This document shows positions 9,706 through 49,600 of a stretch of DNA of 64,000 nucleotides, piece after piece (within the stretch, counting starts at the first letter, position 1; every line of letters begins with the position of its first letter). The notes beneath the pieces were generated by a model that was not told the DNA's origin, did no database searches, and saw nothing but the letters and a program-made list of their open reading frames with translations. Source of the stretch: Lucifuga dentata (lineage: Eukaryota > Chordata > Actinopteri > Ophidiiformes > Bythitidae); NCBI GenBank assembly GCA_014773175.1, contig VXCM01001530.1:1-64000 (forward strand). The letters run 5' to 3'. The translations under genes and the position numbers were made by a program.

Positions 9706-9745
9706 CTGGGATATTAAAGGTGGCTTCTCTTACCTGTAAAAGAAA
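9706..9745 (-). promoter_or_regulatory. HOMEZ: HOMEZ 5'UTR splice acceptor fused to a donor-like sequence
   Basis: On the minus strand a pyrimidine tract and TTTTACAG (plus 9734-9741) are followed directly by GTAAGAG (from plus 9733 down), then the HOMEZ leader and ATG. It is read as the acceptor of the coding exon. A strong donor lies immediately behind it, which is the layout of a recursive (zero-length-exon) splice point. Confidence 0.45.
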
Positions 9746-22490: not shown

Positions 22491-25400
22491 ATGGCTGGAG
22501 GTTCACAGTCACTGTGGATTTACCTCCTCCTCTCCTCCGTCTTTCAAGTTTCTTACCACAGACACGGTAAGGCACCGTAATCTGTCCTCATATTGTTCTG
22601 AGTGTGACTTTAGTTTATCCCTTAATACTTCTATGCAGTAATAATTTCAATTCTTACAATTCTTTTCAGTCCATCCAGGAGATGTGAAAGATTTAATCAG
22701 TCATACAGGAAATCCACATGTAGACCAGATCATTTCACAGATCCCAGTGAGTCCTAACAACTCTGACTTATCAAAATAGATGAATTGATTCATAAATCCT
22801 AATCCTGATCTACTCTGTGTCCTGTTGATCTCAGATAACACTACCAGCAGGAACTGACCCCAATAATGTAAATGTAACGGTATGTAATGAATATTTTTCA
22901 GGCTTATACACAGTTCCTGTAGTTTGTTTTTACTTTTGTCAGCGTTTTGATTTTGAGAATCAATTGTTAAATACAGCTTTCATTTCTGTTTCATCCAACA
23001 TGCTTTTATTCTCTTGCAGGCAATTATTATCAAAACATGTGTTGGTAAGTGCTGAAGTTTTCATGTCTGTGTGCACGTGAAAAAAAAAAAAAACAATCAT
23101 TCATTAATCATTTGTATTCATAATAGGTGAACTACTCCAAGCAGTGGTGATGAATTATTTTAGGAGGTTTTTGGATTTGTAGAAGTGAACATAGCAGGAT
23201 TAGGTGAGGTGGGGATTAGCTATGGAAACAGTATGAAATCATAATTCTTTGCTGTTCCTGATTTTACCAAATGCTGATTTGTGTTTGTCAGGTCTGAAGG
23301 AACAGCTGACGATGATGGACAGGCAGCTTCAGCAGAAGATTACCCAGAACAATCAACTGAGTATTTTACAATAAGGATTTTGAGCATGTTTCCATCATTA
23401 TCACCTAAAAGGAATTGAAATGACATGGGATATGTCAGTGGAAGCAGTGGTCTGTTTCTTGTTGCTCCAATACTGTTTTTGTTTTTTATATTTTTGATAG
23501 ATGAAGAAGCATTCAGTCTGAGGAGTGAAGTCAGGCTGCTGAAACTGAAGCTGGCCACCTGCAGTGCAACAACCTCAGCTATCAGTAAGCCTTCTTGCTG
23601 TATCCTCATGTGAAGATAATACATGTGGAATAAAAGCAACACTTTAAAAAAATTAGGGTTTTTGTTTGTTTTTTTTTTTAAAGGGGGCATATTATTATTT
23701 TATTTTGTTACTTCCCCTAATTTTGATAGTGTAATCTAGTAGGGAATGTGTGTTGAAAAATTGAGGTTGATACCTATAGAAATGCATCCAGTAACACAAA
23801 CCTATAAGTCCTGATTTTGATTGGTCCTTTACTTCTGCAACATGTTGACATCAACATGTTTCACATATTGGGAGTTAAAATATTCCACGCCTGGTTAAAC
23901 ACACCCACCACGTACGATGCTTGTGAGCCAGTGTTTGGCCAGTATGTTTTGGGGGTGATGTGTGTTGCCAGCTCAGGCCTGATGTAGTTGACCAATCAGA
24001 TGAGGGTTGGATGATTGGAGGGGGGCCTTAAAGAGACAGCAACAGCACAAGTGAATCAGTGGGGAATTCCTAAAACACAGCGGCAGACATAACATATCGA
24101 TAAGGACAAATATCGCTAAGCAACAATGTTCTCTCATTCATAAACATCTGTTAAAGTAATCTTTTAGCATTTGCCTTGAAAAAGATGTTACGACGATATT
24201 TCCTTATTTATCACGCCACTTATTTACCATGATAAAAGTTATCATGATTTATTTTAATGAATGCTCACCATTGTGTTTTTTGCACAATAAAGCATTGCAA
24301 AGGTTTCAAAATATGCCCTACATGAAAATAAGAACATGGAAATCTGTATAACATGTCCCATTTAAAGTAAGTTTTCTTTCTCATCAAAAAGTGAGTTGCA
24401 TACAGAATTTTATTGTAATTGTAAATGACAATGAATATTCTGATTCTATTCTAAAATGACAGCTTATCAAAACCAGCTGCGCAAGAAAATGGAACAGCTG
24501 CTGGAGACGTTTGATAGCGACACGTTCTTGAGTAAGTTACCCTGACTTGGAGCAAACTACAAAACCAGAAAATCACTTATGATTTATGATTTATGGTTTT
24601 GCAATATGTCAAAACTCCCTTCAGTTTTTTATTGTTTATCCAGAGTATCAGCTAAATGCTTAAAAAAGTTTTTTTTTTTTTTTTCCTAGTTCTGAAGATA
24701 ATTGAACTGACTGGCGAGGTCAATGCATTTGAGAAGAAAAAGAACGAAATTGTTGGGAATTCTACTGAAACTACCAATGAAATCAGTGGTGAGTGATTTA
24801 TTCTTCGTGCTCTGAGTTATTGTTAGTAAATAAAGATTATTTGTGTGTCTGTTACTTTCAATTCAGCATAAAAATGTATGTCTGTGTGATATTATCATAC
24901 TCTAATAATCAGTTTTTGTGAGAGTACCTTTGTAAGCGTCAGTTAAATGCCCTCAAATGACAGTTTTCATATCTAAAATTGTCCCACAGAGCTGCAAACA
25001 GAGCTGAGAGAGAAGATCAGTGAACTGAGGAATAAAACTGAGCAGATGAAAAAGAGCCACGAAAACTCCCACCTCAGTAAGTTAAAGGACCATACTGGTG
25101 AATTTGCATATTCCAGCCCAATTAATACTACCATACTACCTGCCTGCACATTACATTATGTTGGTAATTACAGTACCACCAACCATTTTCCAAAACATAA
25201 AACCGTCTTTTTAGTTTTCCTGTTTGCCCAATCACTTCACAATCACAGTCTTTCAAAATCAAATATTCAGATACACCCACCTTAAAATTCAATGTTTCAC
25301 CTGTTAACACTTAAACACAATTGAAGGCATGGTTGTTTTAATTTCTCAGTAAAAACAGTCTTCTCCTGGGACTATATTCCCTGGTGGAGATGTCTTCTGT

Positions 25401-26481
25401 GTAGCTCCATGTTGAATCTCTGTTGAAATGCTAAAATTACATTACTTTGGCAAAAAACTTCAAATAAGTCACGTTGTGATGGATTATCTTAAGCAAGTTT
25501 CAAGTCTCTACAAGTTATTTTTTGTAGTGTGCTGGAATGAACTGAAACCAGGTTGTATTTGTATGCAGGTTTATTTCTGTATGCAGGTTGTATTTCTTGG
25601 GCTCAAACATGTAAAATGACCATTATGGTCCTTTAAGAAGAGAACTCACAAGATGTTAATAAAACAGCTGAATAGTAGCAGTGAACATTTGTAAAGTCTG
25701 CACATTAAAGAGGCTGATCCTGCTATGATTTGTGCAGCCTCAGTCATTACTGGTTCTAATTTGACCTTTTTATGTTTGTTCAAGTTCTTCAGATCATCAT
25801 GCTGCAAAATCAAATCTGGGATTTACAGCAAGCAGAATCAAAAAGAGGAGAATTCAGTCAGCAGAGCACCAAGCAAATTCTGGGTAAAGAAAAATCTATA
25901 ATGTGACTACCTCCATGTTTAGATTTATGTTTAATATCCATGTGACTTCATATCTTTTTCAAGTGTAATACATTTAATATATTAGTTCTGAGTCCATCCA
26001 AAATGTGAGTTTTAGTAAAAAAAAAAAAAAAANAAAAAAAAAAAAAAAAGGAAAAATATTTATCAATTAAACATTTCATTTCTTCATATACAAAATTCAA
26101 ACCATAAAAAACATTTAGTGTTAGATTTCAATTAACCGTGTTTTTGTGACATTTAACATAAATAACAGGAAATGTGCAGTTGAAAAACACATTCTCACTC
26201 TTTCCTGTCAGCGCTACAAAAACAGCTGGACATTAAGATCGACGAGCTGTGGAGCACAGGAGACGCCGAATCCTCAGGTCACTATCATCTCTCTGCATCA
26301 GTTAATATTTTCTTTTTCATCTTCAGAATATTACATTTTCTGATGAACACTTTCTGTTGGCGCTGTAGTGCTGCAGCTGATCTCAGTTCAAAATAGGATC
26401 ACATTGATACAGAGACAAATCAGTGTCCACATTCAGAAATCCAGATCACAGACTGTTGGTGAGTTTCTGTGTTGACATATC

Positions 26482-26542
<61 letters not shown>

Positions 26543-29500
26543 ACAATGTGAATCCAAGATTAGAAATATGAGATGAACCCACATATCATTTTATTTTTCC
26601 AAACCAGATCTACACTAATATGTCTTTGTTCCCTTTTCAGATTTACAAAAGCAGTGGAGGCAAAAGCTTGATCTCCTTAAAAAGAAGATTTTACAGTTGA
26701 ATCGTGAGGAGAAGAACACAGCGATTAGTGAGTGTGCAGATTCAGCTTTACCTGCCTCAAAATAGAAGTTAGAGGTTCAATTTATTTGTTTAATAAGACA
26801 ATAATTTGACATGTTCTTTTTGTTTTGTTCAGCCCAGGAGATTCTGAGCCTGCAGCTTGAGGTGGAGCATTTTAGAGTGTTAATGTCCAACGCCAAAAAT
26901 ACATCTGATGTCTTACTAGCAGGTATCAGCTAACTGAAACGTTTTAGACTTGTTATTAAATGGACACACAGTAGAGTCACTCTTCTGTTTGTCTTGTCTG
27001 TGATATTGTGATTTTACCAAAAAAAAAAACAAAAAAAACCCCTTCAATAAATGTTATGATATATGTTATGATATCAGTGTCAAAAAGGCATGAATCCATG
27101 ATTGTCTTTTCTCGTAGAGCTTAGAGCAACTTTGGAGAAGGAGATGAAACTGCAATACGACCTACAGAAACAGATGGAGGAAGCAGAGTTTGCTCAAACA
27201 CAAGTCGGTGAGTAGGAGTGGCTCTTTTGTCTTAAAGGACAATACCAGTGTTTTTGCATGTTTGAGCTGAATATATATGATCCGCATACATGTTACATTA
27301 CTGACAACCATTTCCCAAAATATACTACTTGAGCATAGACACTTGAAGCCTGCTTGAGATAAGTAATCCATCGCATCAAAAGCTATGTCTATTAAGTTTT
27401 TTGGTTGAAGTAAGTTTTTTTTTTTTTAATGGGTCCAACACAGAGTTGCACAAAGCAAATATAGCAAATATATACAACAGCAAATATAGTCCCAGGAGAA
27501 GGTGGCTTTAATGACAAATTAAAAATAACTGTCCCTTCTACATTCAGATGTACGTATTAGCAGGCGAAACATTGAATTTTAAGGTGGGTGTATCTGAACA
27601 TTTGATTTTGAAAGATTAAGGGATTTGGCAAAATAACAGGAAAACTAAAATACGGATTTATGTTTTAGAAATTATTTGTCAGTAAGATAACTTGTATGCA
27701 GGTAGTATTTATTGGGCTTAAACATACAAAATCACCGGTATGGTCCAGAAGGCAGATTATACATCATATTTACATAGTGCTTTTCCCATGAAAAATTACA
27801 AACATAAAAACAAGATTAAGAATGGAAATAATACATGTCAATTAATACATGCAAAATACAGAGGTGAAACAAACATGTCACAGCCATGTTGTTACTCCCA
27901 ACAGGCAAAAACTGTTTGTCACCTTAACTCAAAAACTGATAAATGAATGTTTATTTTTTGCTGGAATCAGCCATGAAGATCATCAGCATGATGAAAGAGC
28001 TGAGGGAGCTGCAAGATGACAAACAAGAACAAACAACGACGACGACAACAAGTCAAATTACCCGTGAGTGCAGCCTGAAAATCCTCAAATTCTCTTTTTC
28101 TTCTTTTCTTAATGTCTTATGACTTTACTTTACATTACTTTAGAACTTCAGAATCTACTTGAAGCTAAAGAAAAGGAAAACACTAAAGCTCGGGCTGAGA
28201 TAAAAGGTCAGTCATGTCAGAAAAACTCTAGAAAGTACAAAGCTCAGCTGTGAGAGGTTTTGATGACCTGTCTTCCTCTTTCTTTATACGACAGAGCTGC
28301 AGAGGAAACTCAAATCAAAGAGTGATGAATGGTCTGAGCTTCAGGACAGATATGACAGTAAGCGCCGTAAATCTGAGTTCAGCTCAAAAGCTCTGATGCT
28401 TCATGTTTGTGTTTCAGCCGTGATATGGATTTTTTGTCTGTTTTTATCAGAGGTAAAGACTGACCTTGAAGAAAAGATTGCAAAACTGAACAGAATTGGA
28501 GAATCCAAAGTGGCACTTAGTGAGTGAGGTTACAATGCTGTGGCAATATTCTCATTAGGTGCCTCTGGCTAGTTATGTTTCATACAGACTGTTTGCTTCA
28601 GATTTGTAAACTATCTTGTGACTTGTCTCTGTTCTCTGGTTCAGTTTTGACCATCATAACTCTGAATGATGAGCTGAAGGCACTGAAGGGTCTGATTGCT
28701 GCCACAGAAGACCCAGACAAAATCTCAGGTAAGTAGACATAATGAAAAGTTTGACATGGTAAAAACCTGTAATAATTTTCAAAAAGATTTGCTAGCGAAA
28801 TGAAGTCATTTCATTAATTTATTTGCAAAGTAATGTTCTGTATCTCTTCACAGAGCTGCAGAGGCAACTGGAGGAGAAGAAACAAGAACTGGCCTCCAAG
28901 ACAGCAGACATGGAGAAAGTGATTTCCAACCCCAAAATAAGTGAGCACATTGACTTGATGCACATGATGATCTGAGTCACTGTTTTAATCAGAATGGGTG
29001 TAACTTCAAACCTGTGGTCAGATTCATCATATCCAAAGTTTAAAGTCTCATGATGGTGCCATGGCAACTGTCTGAAATGTTGAACATTCATTATTTCATG
29101 CTGAGTTTTATCACTTTTACCAAAGCGTAAGACTCAGTTGGTGAGAATGTGTCAAACACAGTTACCCAGTTATCCATCTCTTAGCCTTCACTCCTTTCCT
29201 CTCATCTTAAAGGACCATACCAGTGGTTTTGCATGTTTAAGCTCAATATGTACAACTTGCATGCATTACTGACATCCATTTCCCAAAATATTTTAAAATA
29301 TACTGTCAGGTACAAAGCCATTTCCACATAAAATTGCTTGAAGCTTACTGTGTATAGTTTAGGTACATATGAACAATAAGTAAATGGATTAAATGGACAC
29401 ACTGTGCTGTTGACTAAAAGCAGCACTGACTGGTTTCTAAAGGAACATATTCAGAGTCACTGCATGTGTTTCTTTCAGTTTTATCAATCATTGAGCTGCA

Positions 29501-32500
29501 GAATGAGATCTGGGACCTTCAGAAAAACACTACCACCGAGACCACAGATCACCATGTGGAAGGTCAGTCATATAAAATGCCAATGTGCCATAATTTGAAA
29601 GTCAAATTATGTGGAATAATTTTGTTAAAACAGTTTTACATTAACAACTTTACTTTCCCCAGAGCTGCAAAAGATGCTGGATCAACATATTGGCAAATTG
29701 GAAGACAAAGGCAATGAAAACACAAAACTGAGTGAGTCTGATTAAAAAAAAAAAAATCTATTGTTATTGACATTTTGCACAGCGTCTTATATTTTTGTCA
29801 TAAGCTACAATTTTGCCAAAAGGAAAATTCAACTGTGTGTTATATGTGTTTCAGTGTTGAAAATTATGACACTGCAGAGTCAGAAGGAGCAACTGCAGAA
29901 GCAGCTGTCAGACCTCCAGGCATTACAAGCCTCTGAGGTAACCAGTAAGTATCTCCAGCAATCCAGAACAAATCTTTATCTGATGGTTCACCACTTTGCT
30001 GATGTTGAGGGCAAAAAGTCACCCTCTGATAAAACGTTTGAGTGTAATGTTGTTAGTAACACATCCTGATTGACTACATCTAACGTCTGACATTTTCTTT
30101 TTCTCAGAGTTTACAAATGAGCTTACAACCAAGACGAAAGAGCTGGAGAAATATATCAATGAGCTGAATGAGAAAAATCAGACAAATGCCAATTTGAGTA
30201 AGTACAGATAAAATATGTGTTTACATATTCACCATCAGGGAACAGAAAGAAATGTATTTGTCTGCATAATGTATTCTCTCTGTGTTCCTCAGTTTTGACC
30301 GTCACTAATCTGCAAAACCAACTCAGAAACATAACGACAAAAATGCACAAAGCTCACGAAACATCTTCTGTTACAATTGCTAGTGAGTGTTAAATTTCTC
30401 TTTGCCATTACTGAATTCATCAATGATAATTAGCTCTTTGATAAGCTGAAGCCCTAAAGGACAAAACCAGCCATTTGAGCCCAATATATACAACCCGCAT
30501 ACATGTTACATTCCTGACAATCATTTCCCAAAACATACAACTGGACCAGTACATTTTTGAGTTGTTTTTCCTACCTTCCAGACTATCAGTGGTTTAATTT
30601 CATTCCAGCGCTATAAAAATCAACTTGTAGAGATTTGAAACTGCTTGAGATAAGTAATCCAGCATATATCTATTAAGATTTTTTTTTTTTTTTGTCAATA
30701 CAAAGCTGCACAAAAGACATTGTATGTTTCCGCCAGGGAATATAGTCCCTGGAGAAAACGGCTTTTACCGAAATGGGTATATCACCTGAACATTTAATTT
30801 TTTTGCAAAATTAGGGGATTTGGCAAAAAAAAATAAACAAATAAATAAATAAATAAAATATATGTTTATGTTTTGGAATGGTTGTCAGTAACATAACACG
30901 TATGCAGATAGTATTTATTGGGCTTAAACATGCAAAATCACCACTATGATCCTTTAATTATTTTTGTAGAGCTGAGGGAACAGCTGGCTGCAAAAGCGAA
31001 GGAGCAGGCTCACGATCATGCTGAAATCCAATGTAAGTTATGAAGGCTTGGTCTCATTGTTGGTCAAGAAAAAGAACATTAAGTTCACTATGGTTTGTTT
31101 TTTATGTTAGTGCTGCAGAATAAACTGGCAGAGATGGAGACACAATGTTCCAGTGTCGGGGAGAAAGTTGACGGTGAGTTTAGTCGCTCTTAAAGTGCAG
31201 CTAAAGTTTGACTCTACAGGACTGACAGTTGTGTTTGTGTCCCTCTCAGATCTGCAGAACAAACTGGATGCTAAAGTGAAGGAACTGGAGGCCAAATCTG
31301 ACACTGTTACTTCCCTTGGTGAGTCGTAAACTTCCATCTCAGTGAGTGGAAGCAACAAACGATCATTTTCAATGCAGATTTTTTGTTAAATGATTAATCA
31401 TTTATCATCAATAAAATGTTCAGCAGTAGGGGCAAATACCTGTTGGAAATTTCCAGAGACTAAGGTAACGTCCTCAAATAGTTAACAGTTTAAAAAAACC
31501 CAAAGATGATTCAATGTGTTGTTAATTATTTATTACATTTACCATTTATCAATCCTGATAGATTTTCCTTTATATACTTTGTCCATTAACTAATAGTTTT
31601 GCTTTGACCACTAACAGTAATAAGTTAAAAAGTTTCACAGTTATGCACACTGATGTTTATCTGGTGAGATGAATTGTGCTGGTCAAAATCATATTCTTTG
31701 GTCATGAAGGAAAAACTTCCAGCTGTAAAATGAATCTTTCAGGCCATTTTCCTCACTGCTAATGAGAATGAGATACAGAGCATTACGATCTGCATAATTA
31801 ACTTAGTAATAATTGGTAATAACTGAATGATTCTTTTAGCTCTTCGGGTTTCCACATTAAACCTCCAACTAGAGGCACTAAAAAAACAGCTAGAGAACAC
31901 CGACGCAAAATCCAAGATCAAAGGTGAGTTATTATCATTTTATGTCAAGTGTTGCCCAACTACATATGATTACTGAAAGGGCCATCCAGTGGTTTTGCAA
32001 GTTTGAGCCCAATAATTACTATCCCCATACATGCTAGTTTACTGCCAACCATCTTCCAAAACACAAAACCATATTTTAGATTTCATATTTGTTTGCCAAG
32101 TTCCCCAATCTTTCAAAATCAAATGTTCAGGTAATACACCCACCATAAAATTCAATGCTTTGTTTGCTACTTACACAGGATTGTAGAAGACACAGTTATT
32201 TTAATTTCTCGATAAGCAGTTTTCTTCTGGGTCTATATTTCCTGGCAGAGACATACATTTTCTTTCATGTAGCTCCATGTTGGAGCTAAATTAATAAGTT
32301 AAGTAACTTCAACAACAAAATAATAATGGCGTGCGGTTCACTGTGATGGATTTATCTGAAGCATATTTGTCTCTACAAGTTTATTTTAATAGGTTACTGG
32401 AAATAACTAAAACCAGTGGCAGTCAGGAAGGTAGGAAAAATAAGTTTAATATTTACTGCTCCAGTAGTATGTTTTGGTAAATGGTTGGCAATAATGTAGC

Positions 32501-35500
32501 ATGTATATGTAATATATAACGGTTGTGTTTATTGGCAAAATTGCAAAATCACCAGCAGTGTAATTATATTTCATCATTGCCTTGATTTGAATTTATATCC
32601 CAGGCTATTTAGTGACAGTTTCCATTTCTGATATATTTTGTTTCCATTTTGTTTAAATTAATAAGTTTTAGTTTTTCATGTTTCTTGTTAAAAAGACAAA
32701 GAGCAACCACACCGATAATTTTTCTCCACTATGGCAGCTCAGCCCTTCCGTACATAAATAAAAAAGAAAGAAAGAAAAAAGAAGGCTGCACACAGCTCAG
32801 TATCAGGGAAAAGCTACAACAGTGATGAGAGATATGAAGAGTTGAGGAGGTTTATAGACACACAAATGAGTTTTTGTCTTTGTTCCACAGAGCTACAAAA
32901 AATAATAAACGACAAGAATATTGAGTTGGCCAACAAAACAGAAGAGCTGAAGTCAAGAAGTGCTCAGCCACTAAGATGTGAGTGTATCAACAGAAGAACA
33001 TACATTTTAATTTTGTTTGCATTAATCTGAACAATAAATCTTTTCTCAGATTAACAGCAACCACATGAAATAATCTAAATCAGTGAATTACACATACAGT
33101 CAAGGTTGAAATTTGTACATGTTGGAGTAAAACTGTGAAAGTTTAACCCTCCTTTCAGTTCTGCAGATTTTTGCTATCCAAACAGAGATTGAGAAGCTGG
33201 TAAACACTGGAGCAAATGAAACAAATTATTATAAGATCACAGGTGAGTGGCATTAAAAACATATGCTGAGGACACCAAACCAACAACAATGTCAAATAAT
33301 CAAGTTTATCTCCTGTATAAACAATAAATGTTATTTTCTTTGAAGCTTGAGGCTCACATTAAATTATAGTTTTCCACATCTCTTGTCCATAGCACTTCAA
33401 AATCATCTGAATCATTTGATAGATGGGATTCAAGATGAAAAGAATGAAAATACTAAACTGAGTGAGTCATAATTAAAATGGCAGTAAATTTCAGTGATTG
33501 GTTCCAATGGGTAACAAATAACAAACATAACCATGTTTTTTTTTTTTTTTTTTTTTTTTCTGGTAGTGTTTAAGATCTTGGCTCAGCAGGATGAAGTAGT
33601 AAATCTGAAGAAGCAAAGAGACAAAGAAAACCAGGCAGAGCTGGATAAAATTAAAGGTAAGACACATTTTTAAAAATGCTCAAACTTGTGCTAAAATGCT
33701 TTTTCATATACATAAATAACAAACTTTGCATTTCCCACAGAGCTGGAGGATGAATTAGAGGACACAAGAAATAAGATAAAAGAGAAAACAAAGGGGCTGG
33801 ACACAAGTGAGATGAGGATTGCTAATCTGTGTAAGTTTTTTTTTTTCCCCTAATCTTTTATGAGACAATATCATAAATTATAAAAATTGAAGTAGGAAAA
33901 GAATGTTTGAAATAATATCATGTCAGAATCACAAAAGTAGCTCGCTTATGATTCTAGCGGCTCAGATTATGGAGCTTCACAAGAAAATCGATCCACTGGA
34001 GACTGAAATATCACAACTCAAAGAAACATACACTGAAAGGAATGCAGGTTTTTAACATTTGCCTCGTCATGACGTGTTATAAAAAAAAATATATATATAT
34101 ACTCAGATGCAGAGTTTTGTTTTATTGTTCTCTATTTAACCACACTTGATATCATTTTCAGAGCTTCAAAAGAAACTGGCTTTTAAAGAACAGCAACTGC
34201 AAGACAGTCACCAGATGCTCAACGACGAAAATACAAAGAATTATGACTTGAGTATGAAAATGTCTTATTTGCAACTGTTTATTACCAGCCGTCAGTTTGT
34301 TTCCTTTAACACCAAAATGACCATTTGTGTTGTGTTTCTGTCTCTGTTAGTAATGCAAGTCGCTGATCTCAGGAACAAGCTGACGCAGGCTCAGAGGAAG
34401 ACATCCAAAGCTGATGATATAAATGCAAAAGGTTTGTCAGTCTAATTTTTCCCCAATGTCACATTTCTAATGTCATTCAACATATAATTTCATATTGTCA
34501 GCATGAGAAAATACTTTTAAAAAAATCTTCCTAAGACTAACAGTGCAGCGACTAAATCTTTTGACAGCTTTTTATGAAGTCGTGGTGTCACTTTCATCTT
34601 CTTCTCTCTCAGAACTGAGAAAGCAACTGAAAGCTGAAAAGCAAAATACCAAACAACTTGAAGAAGTAAATCAAGGTACATGCCACACAAAAGAAGACCT
34701 TTAAAGGACCATACCATCCATTTTACATGTTTGAGCCTAAGATATTCAATTTTCATACATGTTACATTACTGACAATCATTTCCCAAAGGATAAAACTGT
34801 ATTTCAGCTTTCCTGATATTTTGCAAAATCTCTTAATCTTTCAAAATCAAATATTTAACGATACACCCAATGCTTCACCTACTAATAGTTATGATAGTTA
34901 AGAGTTATGCCTTATGAAGTCACGGTCGTTTAAATTTTTCGATAAAAGCAGGCCTACTTTTGGGACTACTGTATGTTCCCCAGTGGAGACATACATTCAC
35001 TCCACGCTTTTTGTTGCACGTAAACACTAAAACTACAAAACTCTGTAAAAACCTGCATATACGTATGTTCGTGATGATGGATTGTCTATCCCAAGAATGT
35101 TTCAAGTATCAACAAGTGGATTTTAATAGTGTACCAGAATGAATTGAAACCCAATGGCGGTCTAGAAGATAGGAAAAACATTTTTTGACTCACCGTTCCA
35201 GCAGTATGCTTTGGGAAATGATTGTCAGTAACCTTACGTGTATGAAAATTGAATATATTAGGCTCAAACATACAAAATGGCTGGTATGGTCCTTTAACTT
35301 GTCATTAAAGATCAGCTTGTTCTCAAGTGATCTAAACATATCACCGTCTCAACCGCTTCCCTCCATCAGACTTGAATCAAGAGATCAAGGACCTAAAAAT
35401 GTGCTGCACTGACATCGACAACCAATGTGAAGGTGAGATGCCCATGGCCTCTGCGTGACTTCACACTACAGATATCGTGGAAATCATGCGAGTCACTTGT

Positions 35501-38030
35501 TTATAAATTGAATAATTTTGCAAACAGATTTACAAAGACAACTGGAACAGAGCCAGGCGGATGCCGATCGCCTGCTGCTGCAGCGGAATGAGAAAGATGC
35601 CGACAACAACCGACAGCAGGAGCAGCTGCAGGAGCTGATCGCTGAAAATAACAAGCTGCAGGACCAATATCAGCGTATGTTCCACAACAGAAATACAATG
35701 TCAATTCATCTATAGCAGGAATAGGCAACCGTTTTAATGTCCTGTGCAAGGTCGAGAAATATACTGTCAGCTGTGCTAAGCCTTTTTGGTGTGACTTTAA
35801 TGACTTATGGACCCCACTTCTGGGTGGAGGTGCATGCGTAGCAAGTCAACTGCTCTGCATCTCTGTGGAAGTGAAGTGTGATCCATAATAACACAAATTT
35901 TACCACTGAATCCACATCACAAATTATCTTACACGCACACATACACACACACACACACACACACAGAGACAAACTGTATTTCTGACAATATTCAGATAAT
36001 ATTTCCTCCAAATATTTGAATTTTGCTAAGGCAGCAAATATAATATAATTCAAGGGTCATACTGAATTAGATCTTTGTTTCTGCTAGCCACTGTTTGCTT
36101 GGTTCACGTTTGTAATCCATTGCATATTTTCCAGGTCAGGGTCATCTTGTTCTTCTCCCATAGAAAGATCTTGATTGCACCCAAACACCCCACAAAGTCT
36201 TCCCAAACATTTCCACGTCTTATACAGCAGGGATGGGCAACTTTGATGAGGATAGAAGCCAATAGAATTTCATTTTCACAGTCAAAGGGCCACATATTAA
36301 ACAAAAAATAAGGGTGATTTTCTGGGACATGACACCCTCACCNCCCTCAATTGGTTCAGGCCAGACCCGATCGTATTCTCTCATTAAAAGCTTTGCTACC
36401 ATGGAATGGATTGTAGTAAATACCGCATTACTAATGACTGAGCTACCTCTGCTGAATAATAAGAAAGTAATAACAAAGAAAAACACTTTTTATTATTTTC
36501 ATTTTTAGGGCCGTAGCCGGACCGTGGGCCGCCAGTTACCCATCCCTGTTACACAGCAAAGTTGTCCAAATGAAAACTTTCCATCCCCTTCCAGAAACAG
36601 CAGATTCCTGGTCCTTCCACTTAATAAATCCAAATGTGTTTGTTCAATATGGTTGAAATTGAGAATTAGACCTGCTTTTCTTCTTATCTGACATTATGCA
36701 GCAGTTTTGACAACTGGCTAGTTGAAATTGACTCACGGTTCTGGTAGCACGCATAGGGGAGTTCTACACACACACTCCTGTAAAGACCTTACCTCTGACT
36801 TCAATTATGAATTATGTATTGCNCCACCACACACACACACACACACACACAGGGCAATGCATGTGTGTGGGTGCTTTGTGTCACTGACCTCTGCTCTATT
36901 GTATAAAGTAGAGGAATATCTGTAATTTCTTTTGAGATACTTGATGAAATGTAGAAAACCTGTTCTCTTTTCTGTCTCAATGCTAGTCTTAGAAGATTAC
37001 AAGAACAAACTTGAGGAAAATATACAAGGTAAGTGAGTATTCAGCCATGTGAGCAGAGTATGCTGTTATTTTACCAAACTCTCCTTTCTGACAATATGCA
37101 TTTTTACTGTATTCTTAGATCTTCAAGACAAACTAAACATCGTGGAAAACAGGACTATTCACACTAGTGAGTCAATCAGAAATTCAACTCATGAAGCAGA
37201 TGAAGAAATAGTGAAAATGTTAAATAAGTCTGTGCTCAAAAACAAAGAAATTAAACCAAATAATTTGGATCAATCTAATTATGGAAAACAGGGTTAAAAT
37301 GTGGACTTCTTGGTTAGGTTGAATTAGAAAAAAAAAAAAATCCCTACACTCTCCTCTTTAAGCCACATGAAACACATTGACCTGACAAGACACTTTATAA
37401 ATCAATGGGACACACAACTTTTAGATATCCTGTGTCAATTTCTGTGTAATGTGATGGAACTTTTGTCTGTTTGCAGGAAGGATCACCTTTGATCCAAGCA
37501 CAGCAAATCCGAGAGTAATCTTGTCTGAGGATAACACTGAAATGTCCATTGGCGAGGAAGAGCAAGATGTCCCTCACCATCCAGGTCGGTTTAATGTGGC
37601 TCTAGCTGTGCTTGGCAACACTGGCTTCAACAGCGGCAGACGTTACTGGGAGGTATCTGTAGCTGGGAAGCTGTGCTACAACATCGGGATGGCCAGCGAA
37701 TCTGCAAACAGAGGGAGAGCTGTTCCAATCAGGCCTGTAAACGGTTTCTGGACTATAATCATGACCAAACAAGGTCAATTAAAAGTGTTGGATACAATAC
37801 CTACTACTATTCCAATTCAGACTCAACCTCTAACACTTGGTATTCTGCTGGACTACAAAAAGGGTGAGATCTCCTTCTATGATGCTGGTAAAAGAGCTCA
37901 TATCTACACATTTTTGGGTCAAAGGTTTACAGACAAAATCTATCCATTTGTCAATGGTTGCGTTGAGGATGCTGCGAATCGGACTCCAATTGTTTTACTT
38001 TCTCCTGGATCAGTAGACTGGATACGGTAG
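22491..38030 (+). CDS. Secreted-type long coiled-coil protein with C-terminal PRY-SPRY, 44 coding exons
   Basis: I do not recognise a named gene. My splice reading totals 3,912 bases, 1,303 residues. Exons 1-6: 22491-22566, 22670-22746, 22835-22879, 23020-23044, 23292-23360, 23501-23584. Exons 7-40 are listed in the block entries. Exons 41-44: 35528-35674, 36987-37028, 37119-37166, 37477-38030. The start MAGGSQSLWIYLLLSSVFQV is a classical signal peptide; the upstream ATG at 22475 is in another frame. Residues about 40-1118 are Leu/Glu/Lys-rich heptads, mostly opening with ELQ or ILxI. The last exon encodes PRY (RITFDPSTANPRVILSEDN) and SPRY (GRRYWEVSV, LGILLDYKKGEISFYD). No membrane segment, RING, B-box or Ig domain is seen. 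From exon 4 on all introns are phase 1 and internal exons from exon 5 are multiples of 3. Secretion and ligand recognition by SPRY are inferences. Confidence 0.82.
23682..24361. mobile_element. Second TTAA-flanked MITE family (680 bp) in intron 6
   Basis: TTAA at 23678-23681 and 24362-24365 flank ends AGGGGGCATATTAT and AACATGTCCCAT, an imperfect inverted repeat unlike the AGGACCATACC family. No coding capacity. Confidence 0.6.
25086..25632. mobile_element. TTAA MITE copy F (547 bp), intron 9
   Basis: TTAA at 25082-25085 and 25633-25636; ends AGGACCATACTGG and CATTATGGTCCT. It starts only 5 bases downstream of the exon 9 junction, directly behind the GTAAG donor. Confidence 0.9.
26488..26541. 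repeat. (TG)n microsatellite
   Basis: About 27 TG units in intron 12 of the PRY-SPRY gene. Confidence 0.95.
27236..27746. mobile_element. TTAA MITE copy G (511 bp), intron 15
   Basis: TTAA at 27232-27235; left end AGGACAATACCAG, right end GGTATGGTCC, where the copy is cut off before the final T and TTAA. Confidence 0.85.
29221..29305. mobile_element. TTAA MITE copy H, left end only, intron 21
   Basis: TTAA at 29217-29220, then AGGACCATACCAGTGG and about 85 bases of left terminal repeat before the similarity is lost. Confidence 0.8.
30458..30953. mobile_element. TTAA MITE copy I (496 bp), intron 26
   Basis: Left flank mutated to CTAA (30454-30457), right TTAA at 30954-30957; right end CCACTATGATCCT. 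Its right end stops about 12 bases before exon 27, so the element supplies part of that splice acceptor neighbourhood. Confidence 0.85.
31978..32561. mobile_element. TTAA MITE copy J, eroded, intron 30
   Basis: Left end AGGGCCATCCAGTGG, right end decayed (ACCAGCAGTG); neither TTAA survives. Among the most diverged copies, so probably older. Confidence 0.78.
34705..35293. mobile_element. TTAA MITE copy K (589 bp), intron 39
   Basis: TTAA at 34701-34704 and 35294-35297; ends AGGACCATACCATCC and GGTATGGTCCT. It shares the variant left end with copy M, which suggests a common subfamily. Confidence 0.9.
35943..35964. repeat. (CA)n microsatellite
   Basis: Eleven CA units in intron 41. A similar run lies at about 36829-36851, next to N36823. 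Confidence 0.9.
36228..36548. mobile_element. hAT-type MITE (321 bp), intron 41
   Basis: Terminal inverted repeats CAGGGATGGGCAACT and AGTTACCCATCCCTG, flanked by an 8 bp target duplication TTATACAG / TTACACAG (one mismatch). Inside it are AAAGGGCCACAT and GGGCCGCCAGT, typical of non-autonomous hAT elements. A single N at 36343. Confidence 0.85.
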
Positions 38031-38919: not shown

Positions 38920-40000
38920 TCAGTCCTTTCCTGCTGTACCAGCTACACTCCGGTAAAAGTGGGCAACAAAAACAGAGTCCCGTTCTTCCAGAATGTGTAG
39001 GAAATTATTCCTCTCCTCTTCGCTCCACGAGTCAAACCACTGGGTCCACAGGCGCAGCTGGCACTCAAAAATGTTTGGTAGATTGTCTTTAACCTAGACA
39101 TGGGACAACACAGAAAAGCTGTTATAGCCAGGGAAATAATGTAGTTAGTATGAATGTGATTTCTTGTCTATTTAGAAGATTTAGAAAATATTGTTTAAAA
39201 AAAAAAGTGATTTTAGTCTGTTTTGTAGTTTGGGATTATTACGTATAAAACCTCCTGCCCAATGAATGAATGCTGAAATTCACTCCAGCCTCCTAAATCT
39301 CTGCACAGGATAAGGCAGAGAATGAACAGATGAATGGATGGAAGGATGGATGAAGTCTATTTAGCAGTTACATTATTAAACTGATCTTGATTTGTTTAGC
39401 AGTTTGAGCCCTGTCAAGAAAAGAATCACCATTCATCAGACACGTTCTGAACAAGCTTTTAGATATTAAAGAAGAAAGTAATGAATTACTTTCCTTTTGA
39501 GTAATGTATCCTCATTACGTGCTAGTAGTGGGTAGAAACTTTCCAAAACTGCACCAACCAGCCTACTGGATTATCTGAGCATGAAGTACCTGAAGAGTAC
39601 TGAGTGAATCCAGGAGGGTGCACACTTTCCCGGGCACAGCTTTCCCAAGCAGATCCTGCAGGAATCGCTCCCTCTGGGTGGTGTTCCAGCCCTGGAACCA
39701 GCTCAGGACGCACCGCTGCTCCTGGAGAGTAACATAAGAGATGGGTTCCGATTCTGTGCCTGAACCTGCACTCGGAGAAACACAGGACACGTTCTGAAAG
39801 CTGGAAGGGCCTGCTGCTCCACCCTGGGGTACTGATGGAAACTCTTCCGGGCTGGGTGAAGAGTAGACTGATCCCTCTCTCGGACCCCTGAGATTTGAGT
39901 AGTAAGAGCCACACAAACTACCTGTGGCTGTGCTCGGAATGTTGCCAGTGAGCTGCTGCTGTGAGTTTGAAGTATGACTTGCGTGAAAGAACCACGACAT
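38920..40000 (-). CDS. C14orf119: C14orf119 homologue, two coding exons
   Basis: Exon 1 is 40000-39590 and exon 2 is 39093-38920, giving 194 residues. After a Ser/Gly/Pro-rich N-terminus (about 85 residues), the conserved part begins ISYVTLQEQRCVLSWFQGW, continues TTQRERFLQDLLGKAVPGK, and in exon 2 NIFECQLRLWTQWFDSW with the ending AGTAGKD. These are the hallmarks of the C14orf119 family. Its molecular function is not established, so none is given. The ATG at 40000 has A at -3 and was preferred; an in-frame ATG at 40129 would add 43 residues. It is head-to-head with ACIN1, as in human. Confidence 0.88.
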
Positions 40001-40602
40001 TTTGGAAAGGCTGGTGTGTTTGAGGCTGATATCAGAGCAGAGAGGCTTTTCATCCGCTATCCAAACGCGGACATCAGACGCTAGAGGGAATCCTCTGGTT
40101 TGACAATGTAAACATACAGCTTGTATCAAAGCCTAACCTATCTACCGCCAGAGCCAAAATTTAACCCCAGCATCAATGTTTCCCGTTTTTTAACACGAGT
40201 GGCTGTTATAACTCGTCTTCTCTGAGCGACAACCGACGTGTTTTCAGCATGTTTTAAATGCAACGTTATTCGATTTCGAACGCGAAGCTCTAATCTTTCT
40301 AGCGAACATAAAAACTACGGGAAGTAGACGCAGACAAAAAGGTTCTCCAGCATGAGAGCCTGCGCAGGATCAAGCCTGCGCAAATAGTGCGCAGTTCGTT
40401 CTTGACTATCTAAAAATGCTTACAGGAGTAATTAGGATATATCAAATCGATGAATCAACATCGTTAAGATTTGTTTTTCTGAAAGTGAAATAACGAAAAC
40501 ATTTTTTTACTTGATGTTTTTGGATGAAAGGGAAGTTGTCAACGATTACGTCAATGTGGGAAGGCGTTGCTTGTCGCTCTCGCTGGACTAGAGGATCGGA
40601 AA
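40001..40602. promoter_or_regulatory. Shared divergent promoter of C14orf119 and ACIN1
   Basis: The start codons are 602 bases apart in opposite directions. The interval is CpG-containing, lacks an obvious TATA near either start and holds no repeat. Human C14orf119 and ACIN1 are also divergent neighbours, so the arrangement is ancient. Confidence 0.65.
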
Positions 40603-46600: not shown

Positions 46601-49600
46601 AAAAGCTGTCTATCAAGTTTGGTTGACTTAGCCGACCCAAAATGGAGCTGCACGGAAGACAATGCATGTCTCAGCTGGGGAATATAGTCCCAGGAGAAGA
46701 TGGCTTTTACCAGGACATTAAAACAATCGTGCCTTCTACAGTCGTGGTAAGTGTTAGAAGGTGAAGCAGTGATTTTTAAGGTGCGCGTATCAGCTGAACA
46801 CTTGATTTTAAAAGATTAGGATTGGGAGACATAACAGGAAAATTAATTATACATTTTGATGTTTTGGAAATTGGTTGTCAGTAACGTAACGTGTGTGAGT
46901 TGTAAGATATGTATATTTGGGCTTAAAGGACCATACCATCCATTTTACATGTTTCAGCCTAATATATTCAATTTTCATACATGCAAGGTTACTGACAATC
47001 ATTTCCCAAAGGATACTACTGTATTTCAGCTTTCCTTTACAAAATCTCTTATTATTTCAAAATCAAATATTCAAGTGATACACCCACCTTAAAAATCCAT
47101 GTTTCGCCTGCTAATAGTTACGCAAAATTATGAAGTCATGGTCGTTTAAAATTTTTCGATAAACGCAGGTCTTCTTTTGGGACTGTATTTCCTGGTGGAG
47201 ACATACATTCACTCCACGCTTTTTATTGCTCTTAAATGGTAAAATTACGAAACTTTGAAAAAACCTGAATACATGTCTTGTTCATGATAATGGATTATCT
47301 ATCCTAAGAATGTTTCAAATATCAACAAGTTGATTTTAATAGCATACCAGAATGAACTGAAACCAGTGGTGGTCTGGAAGGTAGGAAAAAATTATTTAAC
47401 TCACCGTTCCAGTAGTATGCTTTGGGAAATGATTGTCAGTAACGTTACGTGTATGAAAATTGAATATATTAGGCTCAAACATGCAAAATGGGTGGTGCGG
47501 TCCTTTAATCATACAAAATTGTCGCTGTGGTCCTTTAAAAAACAGCTTTGCCAAAAATTGAGTCGTTTTTTATAACTGCTTTATGACCTTTGGTTAGCTT
47601 TGGTGGTATCGTTATCGTTTTAACTGCCTCGTCAACTTTGGCACATATTCTTTCCTGACTTAATACCTTATCTGCCATTTTAAATCTGCAGAAACTGCCT
47701 GGAGCACCTTCCAGAGAGGAGACAAATCGCAAGAGAAAGGAAAGGGAAGGAGAAGAGGAAGAGGACAAACATAGGTCTGGCTTTCATTTTTGTGTTTTGA
47801 GACAGAGTTTGTACAGGGTCTGAGCAAATATAGGGTGCATGCGTACACACACATATTTACATACACACACATAAAATTTGTATGTGTGTTGTGTTCTGTT
47901 GTTAAGGTTGTGATTGTGAACAGGGGATGGTCAAACTGATCTGTTGGAAGCATTCTTTAGTACAGTCTGTGCTATGGCTTAGCATATGATGTATCAGAGC
48001 TAGGAACCTTAAAGGATAATGATATTGCATGTTTGAGCCCAATATATACAGTGCTGTGAAAAAGTATTTGCCCCCTTACAGATTTCTTCTGTTTTTGCTT
48101 TTTTGTCACACTTACATGTTTCAGAACATTAAACAAATTTTAATATCAGACAAAGATAACCTGAGTAAATACAAAATGCAGTTTTTAAATGATGATTTCA
48201 TTTATTAAGGGAAAAAAGCTATCCAAACCAACCTGGCCCTATGTGAAAAAGTAATTGCCCCCCCTTGTTAAATGATGAATTAACTGTGATTAACCACAGT
48301 TTTTGGAAAGCTGAGTTCAATTTCACTAGCCACGCCCAGGCCTGATTACTGCCAGACCTGAAGAATCAAGAAATCACTTAAAAAGAACCTGTCTGACAAC
48401 ATGAAGTAGGCTAAAAGATCTCAAAAAGCAATACATCATGCCCCAATCTGAAGAAATTCAAGAACAGATGAGAAACGAAGTCATTGACATCTATCAGTCT
48501 GGAAAGGGTTACAAAGCCATTTCTAAGGCTTTGGGACTCCANNNNNNNNNNNNNNNNNNNNNNNNNNNNNNNNNNNNNNNNNNNNNNNNNNNNNNNNNNN
48601 NNNNNNNNNNNNNNNNNNNNNNNNNNNNNNNNNNNNNNNNNNNNNNNNNNNNNNNNNNNNNNNNNNNNNNNNNNNNNNNNNNNNNNNNNNNNNNNNNNNN
48701 NNNNNNNNNNNNNNNNNNNNNNNNNNNNNNNNNNNNNNNNNNNNNNNNNNNNNNNNNNNNNNNNNNNNNNNNNNNNNNNNNNNNNNNNNNNNNNNNNNNN
48801 NNNNNNNNNNNNNNNNNNNNNNNNNNNNNNNNNNNNNNNNNNNNNNNNNNNNNNNNNNNNNNNNNNNNNNNNNNNNNNNNNNNNNNNNNNNNNNNNNNNN
48901 NNNNNNNNNNNNNNNNNNNNNNNNNNNNNNNNNNNNNNNNNNNNNNNNNNNNNNNNNNNNNNNNNNNNNNNNNNNNNNNNNNNNNNNNNNNNNNNNNNNN
49001 NNNNNNNNNNNNNNNNNNNNNNNNNNNNNNNNNNNNNNNNNNNNNNNNNNNNNNNNNNNNNNNNNNNNNNNNNNNNNNNNNNNNNNNNNNNNNNNNNNNN
49101 NNNNNNNNNNNNNNNNNNNNNNNNNNNNNNNNNNNNNNNNNNNNNNNNNNNNNNNNNNNNNNNNNNNNNNNNNNNNNNNNNNNNNNNNNNNNNNNNNNNN
49201 NNNNNNNNNNNNNNNNNNNNNNNNNNNNNNNNNNNNNNNNNNNNNNNNNNNNNNNNNNNNNNNNNNNNNNNNNNNNNNNNNNNNNNNNNNNNNNNNNNNN
49301 NNNNNNNNNNNNNNNNNNNNNNNNNNNNNNNNNNNNNNNNNNNNNNNNNNNNNNNNNNNNNNNTTTTTCCCTTAATAAATGAAATCATCATTTAAAAACT
49401 GCATTTTGTATTTACTCAGGTTATCTTTGTCTGATATTAAAATTTGTTTGATGATCTGAAACATGTAAGTGTGACAAAAAAGCAAAAACAGAAGAAATCT
49501 GTAAGGGGGCAAATATTTTTTCACAGCACTGTATAGCCCGCATATGTTACGTTACAGACAGCCATTTCCCAAAATATATGACTGAAGCGGTAAATTTTAG

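What the first reader, a model, noticed from the sequence alone, without database searches (positions are those of the whole stretch)
24463..35432. Three tandem 10-12-exon blocks inside one gene, visible as a repeated string of exon lengths
Exon lengths run 69,99,87,99,66,90,87,90,90,93,63,63 (exons 7-18), then 69,84,87,84,69,90,90,90,63,63 (19-28), then 69,84,87,84,69,90,90,90,90,81,63,63 (29-40). Blocks 2 and 3 match exactly in their first eight and last two exons; block 2 lacks one exon pair. Residues agree at the matching places: LQNQIWDLQ/LQNEIWDLQ in exons 10/22, NENTKL with the same donor in 23/33, and ELQxxLxEKxxELAxKT-like starts in 21/31. Exon length has been conserved better than protein sequence. 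I know of no described gene with this architecture.
Basis: seen in the sequence. Interest (0 to 1): 0.85.

Follow-up and report, generated by a model that had tools for sequence, protein, structure and literature searches.

The report
Fish gene built from exon blocks
A cave-fish gene for a long rod-shaped, probably secreted protein is made of three old tandem copies of a 10-12-exon block whose exon lengths barely changed while the protein sequence did, and predicted proteins of other fishes carry different numbers of the block; the architecture resembles known cases such as nebulin.

Summary
The gene runs 22491-38030 (+): 44 coding exons, 1303 aa, all introns after exon 4 in phase 1. The blocks are real: positional partners are more alike than same-type exons for blocks 1-2 and 2-3, marginally for 1-3. 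In a tree of block copies from salmonids and spiny-rayed fishes, blocks 1 and 3 each form one group, block 2 less surely, so the layout probably predates their split. Block number still changes between species; a period of about 260-345 aa shows in 11 of 11 species scanned. Introns keep no trace of the duplication. Exons carry a fixed heptad phase and a weakly helical tail, a plausible reason for rigid lengths. The claim that no such gene is described is wrong: nebulin and CR1 have repeated multi-exon blocks. Function, probably a secreted leukocyte rod with a PRY-SPRY head, is inferred.

The parts
22491..38030 (+). whole coding region, 44 exons, 1303 aa, stop TAG 38028-38030
   Evidence: which prints the end one base too far, 38031; identical to P0001
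22491..22566 (+). exon 1, hydrophobic N-terminus that looks like a signal peptide (read by eye, no predictor run)
22670..23044 (+). exons 2-4 (22670-22746, 22835-22879, 23020-23044), non-coil N-terminal region
23292..23584 (+). exons 5-6 (69 and 84 nt; 23292-23360, 23501-23584), same 69,84 start as a block; possibly a truncated earlier block (weak)
24463..28357 (+). block 1, exons 7-18 (69,99,87,99,66,90,87,90,90,93,63,63)
28451..31173 (+). block 2, exons 19-28 (69,84,87,84,69,90,90,90,63,63)
31250..35432 (+). block 3, exons 29-40 (69,84,87,84,69,90,90,90,90,81,63,63)
24463..24531 (+). exon 7, block position 1, type Y
24690..24788 (+). exon 8, position 2, type X
24990..25076 (+). exon 9, position 3, type Y (3' end set by hand)
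25785..25883 (+). exon 10, position 4, type X, LQNQIWDLQ
26212..26277 (+). exon 11, position 5, type Y
26369..26458 (+). exon 12, position 6, type X
26641..26727 (+). exon 13, position 7, type Y
26833..26922 (+). exon 14, position 8, type X
27118..27207 (+). exon 15, position 9, type Y
27971..28063 (+). exon 16, position 10, type X
28144..28206 (+). exon 17, position 11, type Y
28295..28357 (+). exon 18, position 12, type Y
28451..28519 (+). exon 19, position 1, type Y
28645..28728 (+). exon 20, position 2, type X
28854..28940 (+). exon 21, position 3, type Y
29479..29562 (+). exon 22, position 4, type X, LQNEIWDLQ
29663..29731 (+). exon 23, position 5, type Y, NENTKL
29855..29944 (+). exon 24, position 6, type X
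30108..30197 (+). exon 25, position 7, type Y
30293..30382 (+). exon 26, position 8, type X
30970..31032 (+). exon 27, position 11, type Y (positions 9-10 absent)
31111..31173 (+). exon 28, position 12, type Y
31250..31318 (+). exon 29, position 1, type Y
31840..31923 (+). exon 30, position 2, type X
32891..32977 (+). exon 31, position 3, type Y
33159..33242 (+). exon 32, position 4, type X
33393..33461 (+). exon 33, position 5, type Y, NENTKL
33567..33656 (+). exon 34, position 6, type X
33741..33830 (+). exon 35, position 7, type Y (3' end set by hand)
33958..34047 (+). exon 36, position 8, type X (set by hand)
34162..34251 (+). exon 37, position 9, type Y (3' end set by hand)
34351..34431 (+). 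exon 38, position 10, type X (5' end set by hand)
34613..34675 (+). exon 39, position 11, type Y
35370..35432 (+). exon 40, position 12, type Y
35528..37166 (+). exons 41-43 (35528-35674, 36987-37028, 37119-37166), coiled-coil neck; the exon-41 unit recurs in other fishes
37477..38030 (+). exon 44, PRY-SPRY (B30.2) domain

Best explanation
This is one teleost gene for a long alpha-helical coiled-coil rod with a signal-peptide-like start and a C-terminal PRY-SPRY domain. It grew by two nested kinds of tandem duplication. First, a pair of phase-1 exons (type X, LxIIxLQ start; type Y, ELQxxL start) was multiplied into an ordered unit of 10-12 exons. Later the whole unit was duplicated, giving at least blocks 1, 2 and 3 before the salmonid and spiny-rayed lineages parted; block 2 afterwards lost one exon pair in the spiny-rayed line. 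Unequal exchange between blocks keeps changing block number, mostly at equivalent positions, and homogenises recent copies in some salmonids. Because every intron in this part is phase 1, any exon or block can be gained or lost without a frameshift. Exon lengths stay fixed because each exon supplies heptads in a set phase plus a weakly helical tail, so a changed length would shift the register of the coil. Shown: gene model, block homology, differences in block number between predicted proteins, heptad phase tied to exon start. Inferred: exchange mechanism, order of events, selection on length, secretion, and a role as a leukocyte-produced rod that presents a binding head.
For: Gene model and lengths, identical deposited protein. 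Partner tests. Segmentation of 125 proteins; in 31 of those 125, picked by hand because they contain backward steps (26 non-salmonid genera, five salmonid species), 71 of 81 backward steps fall within one exon of register (47 exact) against 18-23% expected; 41 of the 81 are from salmonids, many are label switches between homologous blocks rather than separate duplications, steps to or from exons outside 7-40 were not counted, and shared ancestry makes them non-independent. L. dentata block n matches block n of Genypterus and Scatophagus at 52-61% but its own other blocks at 24-34%. Tree of 41 blocks: block 1 99/96, block 3 95/91 across salmonids and spiny-rayed fishes. Inner salmonid block-3 copies are 95-100% alike within a species; the last copy is 85-90% to them but 91-99% alike between the six species. 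A period of 260-345 aa in 11 of 11 species, each above its one shuffled control; it is the top period in 10, second in Hemibagrus (top 25). Four bonytongue blocks: 63-74% between Scleropages and Arapaima at the same position, 41-51% otherwise (Arapaima blocks 3-4 cut by assumed spacing). Modal exon length shared by at least 20 of 25 colinear proteins in 27 of 34 exons at mean 53% identity. Heptad pattern tied to exon start, helix propensity lowest 2-6 residues before the last residue; 17 of 17 predicted helix breaks lie 4.5-11 residues before an exon start.
Against: Partner is the best match in only about half of positions, 2/12 for blocks 1-3. Block 2 is one group in only 52% of bootstrap trees, and the program warns of long branches (Lampris, Gambusia and others) whose joins may be false. 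My first structural test, unsigned distance of helix breaks to exon boundaries, was not significant (p 0.63); the signed test was chosen after seeing it (circular-shift p 0.024), on a model of mean pLDDT 66.7 and pTM 0.38, with exon boundaries of that killifish protein projected from L. dentata. Homogenisation is clear in Coregonus (95% within, 90-93% to other species), slight in Oncorhynchus and not seen in Salmo trutta (98% within and to S. salar). Block numbers of other fishes rest on predicted proteins. The 25 colinear proteins were picked by hand and include three of turbot. No genomic DNA of another fish and no transcript was seen. Glycosylation sites are not enriched in the L. dentata coil (10 v 9.2 expected), so they do not support secretion. 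Bonytongue blocks show no preference for L. dentata blocks 1, 2 or 3 by position.
Confidence: 0.85

Rival explanations
1. Only the two-exon X/Y unit was duplicated, many times; the repeated length string arose because coiled-coil heptads allow few exon lengths.
For: X/Y alternation is clear (mean Z XX 2.70, YY 1.64, XY 0.99); lengths fall in a small set; positions 7-9 show little partner similarity.
Against: Length matches and, for blocks 1-2 and 2-3, residue similarity exceed a null that keeps the X/Y types; whole blocks recur at 95-100% identity in salmonids and as in-register units in some flatfishes; exon offsets of 10, 12 and 22 score highest.
Confidence: 0.07
2. The three blocks are recent in L. 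dentata (segmental duplication or assembly artefact).
For: The assembly has single-N joins flanked by 63-67-base perfect repeats at 6 of 19 N runs, so local duplication artefacts do occur.
Against: Blocks are only 24-34% identical, introns share little but a dispersed repeat, none of those six joins lies in the blocks, and positional relatives exist across fishes.
Confidence: 0.01
3. Extra blocks in other fishes are alternative exons used one block at a time, so the array is mainly a device for making isoforms.
For: In 4 of 4 species pairs checked, annotated isoforms differ by exactly one in-register block (281, 282, 284, 264 aa); introns in this part are phase 1.
Against: The isoforms come from database annotation, probably computed; short reads from similar blocks can create false block-skipping junctions. 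The four pairs were chosen because their lengths differed. L. dentata itself has one deposited form among my hits.
Confidence: 0.15

Closest known systems
Nebulin (NEB) triplicate region, exons 82-89, 90-97, 98-105
   Same: Multi-exon block repeated three times in one gene, variable in number (PMC9109913, passages).
   Different: The nebulin copies are highly similar (same passages); here the three blocks are 24-34% identical in protein and recognisable mainly by exon length. Different protein.
Complement receptor 1 (CR1) long homologous repeats
   Same: Block of several modules repeated four or five times, allotypes differing by one block (PMC7487969, passages).
   Different: SCR modules in a receptor, not a coiled coil.
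si:ch211-14a17.10, zebrafish name given to the medaka and opah relatives
   Same: Same family by the database names of P0122 and P0084.
   Different: The zebrafish protein was not among my hits; the link to zebrafish rests on that name.
TRIM and butyrophilin PRY-SPRY proteins
   Same: C-terminal PRY-SPRY; best solved relatives by sequence BTN3A1, pyrin, TRIM21; Pfam PRY and SPRY over cut-off.
   Different: No RING, B-box or Ig family listed for L. dentata at E <= 0.01; a secreted-looking start and an about 1000-residue repeated rod instead.

Membership tests
Genes with tandem multi-exon block duplication (nebulin-like architecture) | Two or more consecutive runs of the same ordered exons within one gene | tested here: met
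Genes with tandem multi-exon block duplication (nebulin-like architecture) | Homology of blocks shown by sequence, not length alone | tested here: met
   borderline for blocks 1-3 taken alone
Genes with tandem multi-exon block duplication (nebulin-like architecture) | Copy number varies | tested here: met
   between species, on predicted proteins; within a species not tested
PRY-SPRY (B30.2) proteins | PRY and SPRY profile matches over cut-off | tested here: met
   60.4 and 60.9 bits
TRIM proteins | RING and B-box before the coiled coil | tested here: not met
   no such family in P0001
Nebulin | Nebulin repeats | tested here: not met
   no nebulin family in P0001
Intermediate filament proteins | Filament domain over cut-off | tested here: not met
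   none in P0001; 66.5 bits in trout P0074, probably a coiled-coil cross-match; none of the 146 listed genome matches lies on the window contig
Secreted proteins | Cleavable signal peptide | not testable with these tools
   hydrophobic start seen by eye and in orthologues printed

The most novel reading that the evidence does not exclude
A teleost family of neutrophil or other leukocyte proteins, secreted as very long coiled-coil rods with a PRY-SPRY recognition head, in which rod length is tuned in evolution, and perhaps by block-skipping splicing, through whole 10-12-exon blocks whose exon lengths have been held fixed since early teleosts. Support, all read as passages: si:ch211-14a17.10 is listed with icn, mmp13a.1, lect2l, lyz and grn2 (PMC12163001) and with grn2 and icn (PMC9653411); lect2l is called neutrophil-specific in PMC10411971; lyz marks neutrophil clusters and mmp13a.1 is high in one of them in PMC10948150. 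Against: the first two papers label the cells lymphocytes and microglia, and one search also lists lect2l and mmp13a.1 in a B-cell cluster, mmp13a.1 in dendritic cells and icn in NK progenitors.
Probability: 0.3. Interest if true: 0.7.

Novelty: new member of a known kind. Interest (0 to 1): 0.5.

Why it matters
Exon length here keeps a record of duplication that protein identity of 24-34% shows only weakly, and the same unit is still being copied in some fishes. That makes the family a good case for asking how unequal exchange, phase-1 introns and coiled-coil register shape a repeat gene, and it flags a widespread fish protein that database entries call by names of unrelated proteins (myosin, golgin, interaptin, DDB_G0290503).

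Tried and rejected
Intermediate filament guess: PF00038 over the own genome listed 146 matches (127 of 222 candidates scored), none on contig C1269 of the window. Inter-block intron similarity was rejected as evidence of duplication: the longer matches belong to a dispersed repeat that also occurs outside the gene and on both strands; the rest is short and mostly at exon ends. Glycosylation-site enrichment: none in L. dentata, no consistent excess in nine other proteins. Self-BLAST of proteins returned nothing in two runs, trout with its near-identical copies included, so I treated it as a failed run and used offset scanning. Lampris block 2 was mis-cut (570 aa) and is to be ignored there; re-cut. 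The first structural test was negative. Function papers: seven papers hold the ch211-14a17 string; I read the matching passage of each: four concern another gene of that clone name.7, a zona pellucida gene, three name .10. Searches meant to find a description of the family (listings only) showed no paper on it; this covers only the open-licence library. PMC7826195 (passages) says a transcriptome and a GFF3 exist for L. dentata; I did not see them. A count of paralogues in the own genome was not obtained.
Full report
What is there. The result has 44 coding exons at 22491-38030 and 1303 residues; one search prints the last exon one base too long, the stop TAG being 38028-38030. Introns after exons 1 and 4 to 43 are phase 1; those after exons 2 and 3 are phase 0. 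The protein database returned an entry identical over its full length, LDENG_00292660 of Lucifuga dentata, a cave fish of the order Ophidiiformes (order recalled).

Two levels of repeat. Exons alternate between type X, starting like LxIIxLQ after one residue, and type Y, starting like ELQxxLxxK. On top of this, the ordered lengths repeat three times. Keeping the X/Y types fixed and permuting partners, equal lengths occur 6/10, 10/10 and 7/12 times against 2.3, 3.7 and 2.2 expected; residue similarity is above the null for blocks 1-2 and 2-3 and borderline for 1-3. Profiles built from 25 colinear fish proteins agree (p 0.0009, 0.0009, 0.04), but also show that single exons are often not best matched to their partner (5/10, 5/10, 2/12) and that positions 7-9 carry little signal. 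These 25 were picked by hand out of the 111; they include L. dentata itself and three proteins of turbot. Similarity by exon offset is highest at 10, 12 and 22.

Other fishes. The first search listed 111 proteins at E <= 0.001, of which 109 look like this family and two are weak SPRY hits. The second added 14, among them Arapaima, the characin Colossoma and two anchovies, and one TRIM-like protein that matches only in part. The third added a mormyrid and then weak coiled-coil cross-matches. In each search only the roughly 8000 candidates sharing most words were scored. I segmented the 125 proteins against the L. dentata exon profiles; bonytongues, anchovies, catfish and characin segment poorly. 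Genypterus and Lampris have three blocks. Seventeen of the 26 non-salmonid genera step from exon 27 back to 17 or 18, that is, have one more copy of block 2. Hippoglossus, Pleuronectes and Limanda repeat the block-3 unit (39 back to 27 or 28). Salmonids run through positions 1-12 in order, with one (Salvelinus) to four (keta, salar) copies of block 3 in the proteins compared. For register I took 31 of the 125, chosen by hand because they contain backward steps: 71 of 81 steps lie within one exon of register (47 exact) against 18-23% by chance; non-salmonids fit in 32 of 40, salmonids in 39 of 41. The steps are not independent, steps to or from exons outside 7-40 were not counted, and genera without backward steps, such as Scatophagus, Gambusia and Sparus, were left out.

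Age and turnover. L. dentata blocks are 34% (1-2), 32% (2-3) and 24% (1-3) identical to each other but 52-61% identical to the same block in Genypterus and Scatophagus. A maximum-likelihood tree of 41 blocks (two of the six salmonids left out) puts block 1 (99/96) and block 3 (95/91) each on one side of a branch across salmonids and spiny-rayed fishes; block 2 is one group in 52% of bootstrap trees; the program warns of several long branches. Block 2 of salmonids is 315-316 aa against 261-263 in the spiny-rayed fishes with a whole block 2, with room for and matches to one more exon pair, so loss of the pair in the spiny-rayed line is the simpler account. In salmonids the inner block-3 copies are 95-100% identical within a species, the last copy is 85-90% to them, and last copies are 91-99% identical between the six species. 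Within-species likeness exceeds between-species likeness clearly in Coregonus (95 v 90-93%), slightly in Oncorhynchus, and not in Salmo trutta (98 v 98%), so homogenisation is partial. A period of about 260-345 residues stands out in 11 of 11 proteins scanned, each above one shuffled copy; it is the strongest period in ten and the second in Hemibagrus, whose strongest is 25. In Scleropages an IW[DE]L motif recurs every 279-286 residues, like the IWDLQ of exons 10 and 22. The four bonytongue blocks resemble each other (41-51%, 63-74% at the same position of the two species) more than any L. dentata block (23-35%; Arapaima blocks 3-4 cut by assumed spacing), so either they multiplied separately or were homogenised.

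DNA traces. The longer matches between introns of different blocks belong to a repeat of about 530 bases that gives 29 further matching pieces in the window, inside and outside the gene and on both strands; what else matches is short and mostly at exon ends. The block duplications are therefore too old to be seen in introns.

Why lengths stay fixed. Averaged over the 25 proteins, hydrophobic residues sit at fixed distances from the exon start (X: residues 1, 2, 4, 5, 7, 11, 14; Y: residues 2, 6, 13, 20), and helix propensity is lowest two to six residues before the last residue. A structure prediction for a killifish relative (P0090, mean pLDDT 66.7, pTM 0.38) shows long helices with short breaks. 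The unsigned distance of breaks to exon boundaries is not special (p 0.63), but 17 of 17 breaks lie 4.5-11 residues before an exon start (sd 2.0 v 7.6, circular-shift p 0.024, a test chosen after the first). So an exon looks like a helix segment in set phase followed by a hinge. Twenty-seven of 34 exons keep one length in at least 20 of 25 proteins at 53% mean identity to L. dentata.

Function. Pfam finds PRY and SPRY over cut-off, and two families below it; the closest solved structures by sequence are butyrophilin BTN3A1, pyrin and TRIM21. The start looks like a signal peptide; no predictor was available. Medaka and opah relatives carry the zebrafish name si:ch211-14a17.10. That gene appears in two lists together with leukocyte genes and as a detected embryo protein, F1R4U6. 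Companion genes are tied to neutrophils elsewhere, though not to them alone. I therefore favour a secreted or granule-stored leukocyte rod, at moderate confidence; this is inference.

Known or new. Repeated multi-exon blocks are described: nebulin, eight exons three times (PMC9109913, passages), and CR1, four or five long homologous repeats (PMC7487969, passages). The architecture is thus a new member of a known kind. Less usual, as far as I know, are the age of the blocks, the survival of the length string, and the two-level order. The searches showed no paper on this gene family.

Open. No transcript, no second fish genome and no paralogue count could be obtained (genome search answered only). 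A near-identical extra block collapsed in this assembly cannot be excluded.

Noticed in passing
window 1413, 10145, 14313, 18327, 57746, 62198: Six of 19 N runs are a single N flanked by perfect 63-67-base direct repeats: probably contig ends joined without merging their overlap.
   Followed up: yes
window 48542-49363: An 822-base run of N, which makes all six frames look open.
   Followed up: yes
window 27232-27760 and 29 further matching pieces on both strands: A dispersed repeat of about 530 bases (TTAAAGGACCATACC...), many pieces in this gene's introns and around it; not identified.
   Followed up: partly
window 7690-9726 (-), 39563-40132 (-), from about 40604 (+): Neighbours: a Homez homeodomain gene and a DUF4508 gene (C14orf119-like by recall), and an acinus-like gene with a long RE-rich repeat (by recall from the sequence; its ORF had no Pfam match). 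The set recalls human 14q11.2.
   Followed up: partly
P0016/P0038, P0025/P0042, P0031/P0048, P0039/P0053: Annotated isoform pairs in four fishes differ by exactly one in-register block of 264-284 aa.
   Followed up: partly
exon 41 in orthologues: The unit at the start of exon 41 is itself repeated in many of the segmented proteins.
   Followed up: no
P0066 (Thalassophryne), P0122 (medaka): Predicted proteins with an integrase domain (P0066) or an extra N-terminal part (P0122) joined to this family, possibly gene-model fusions.
   Followed up: no
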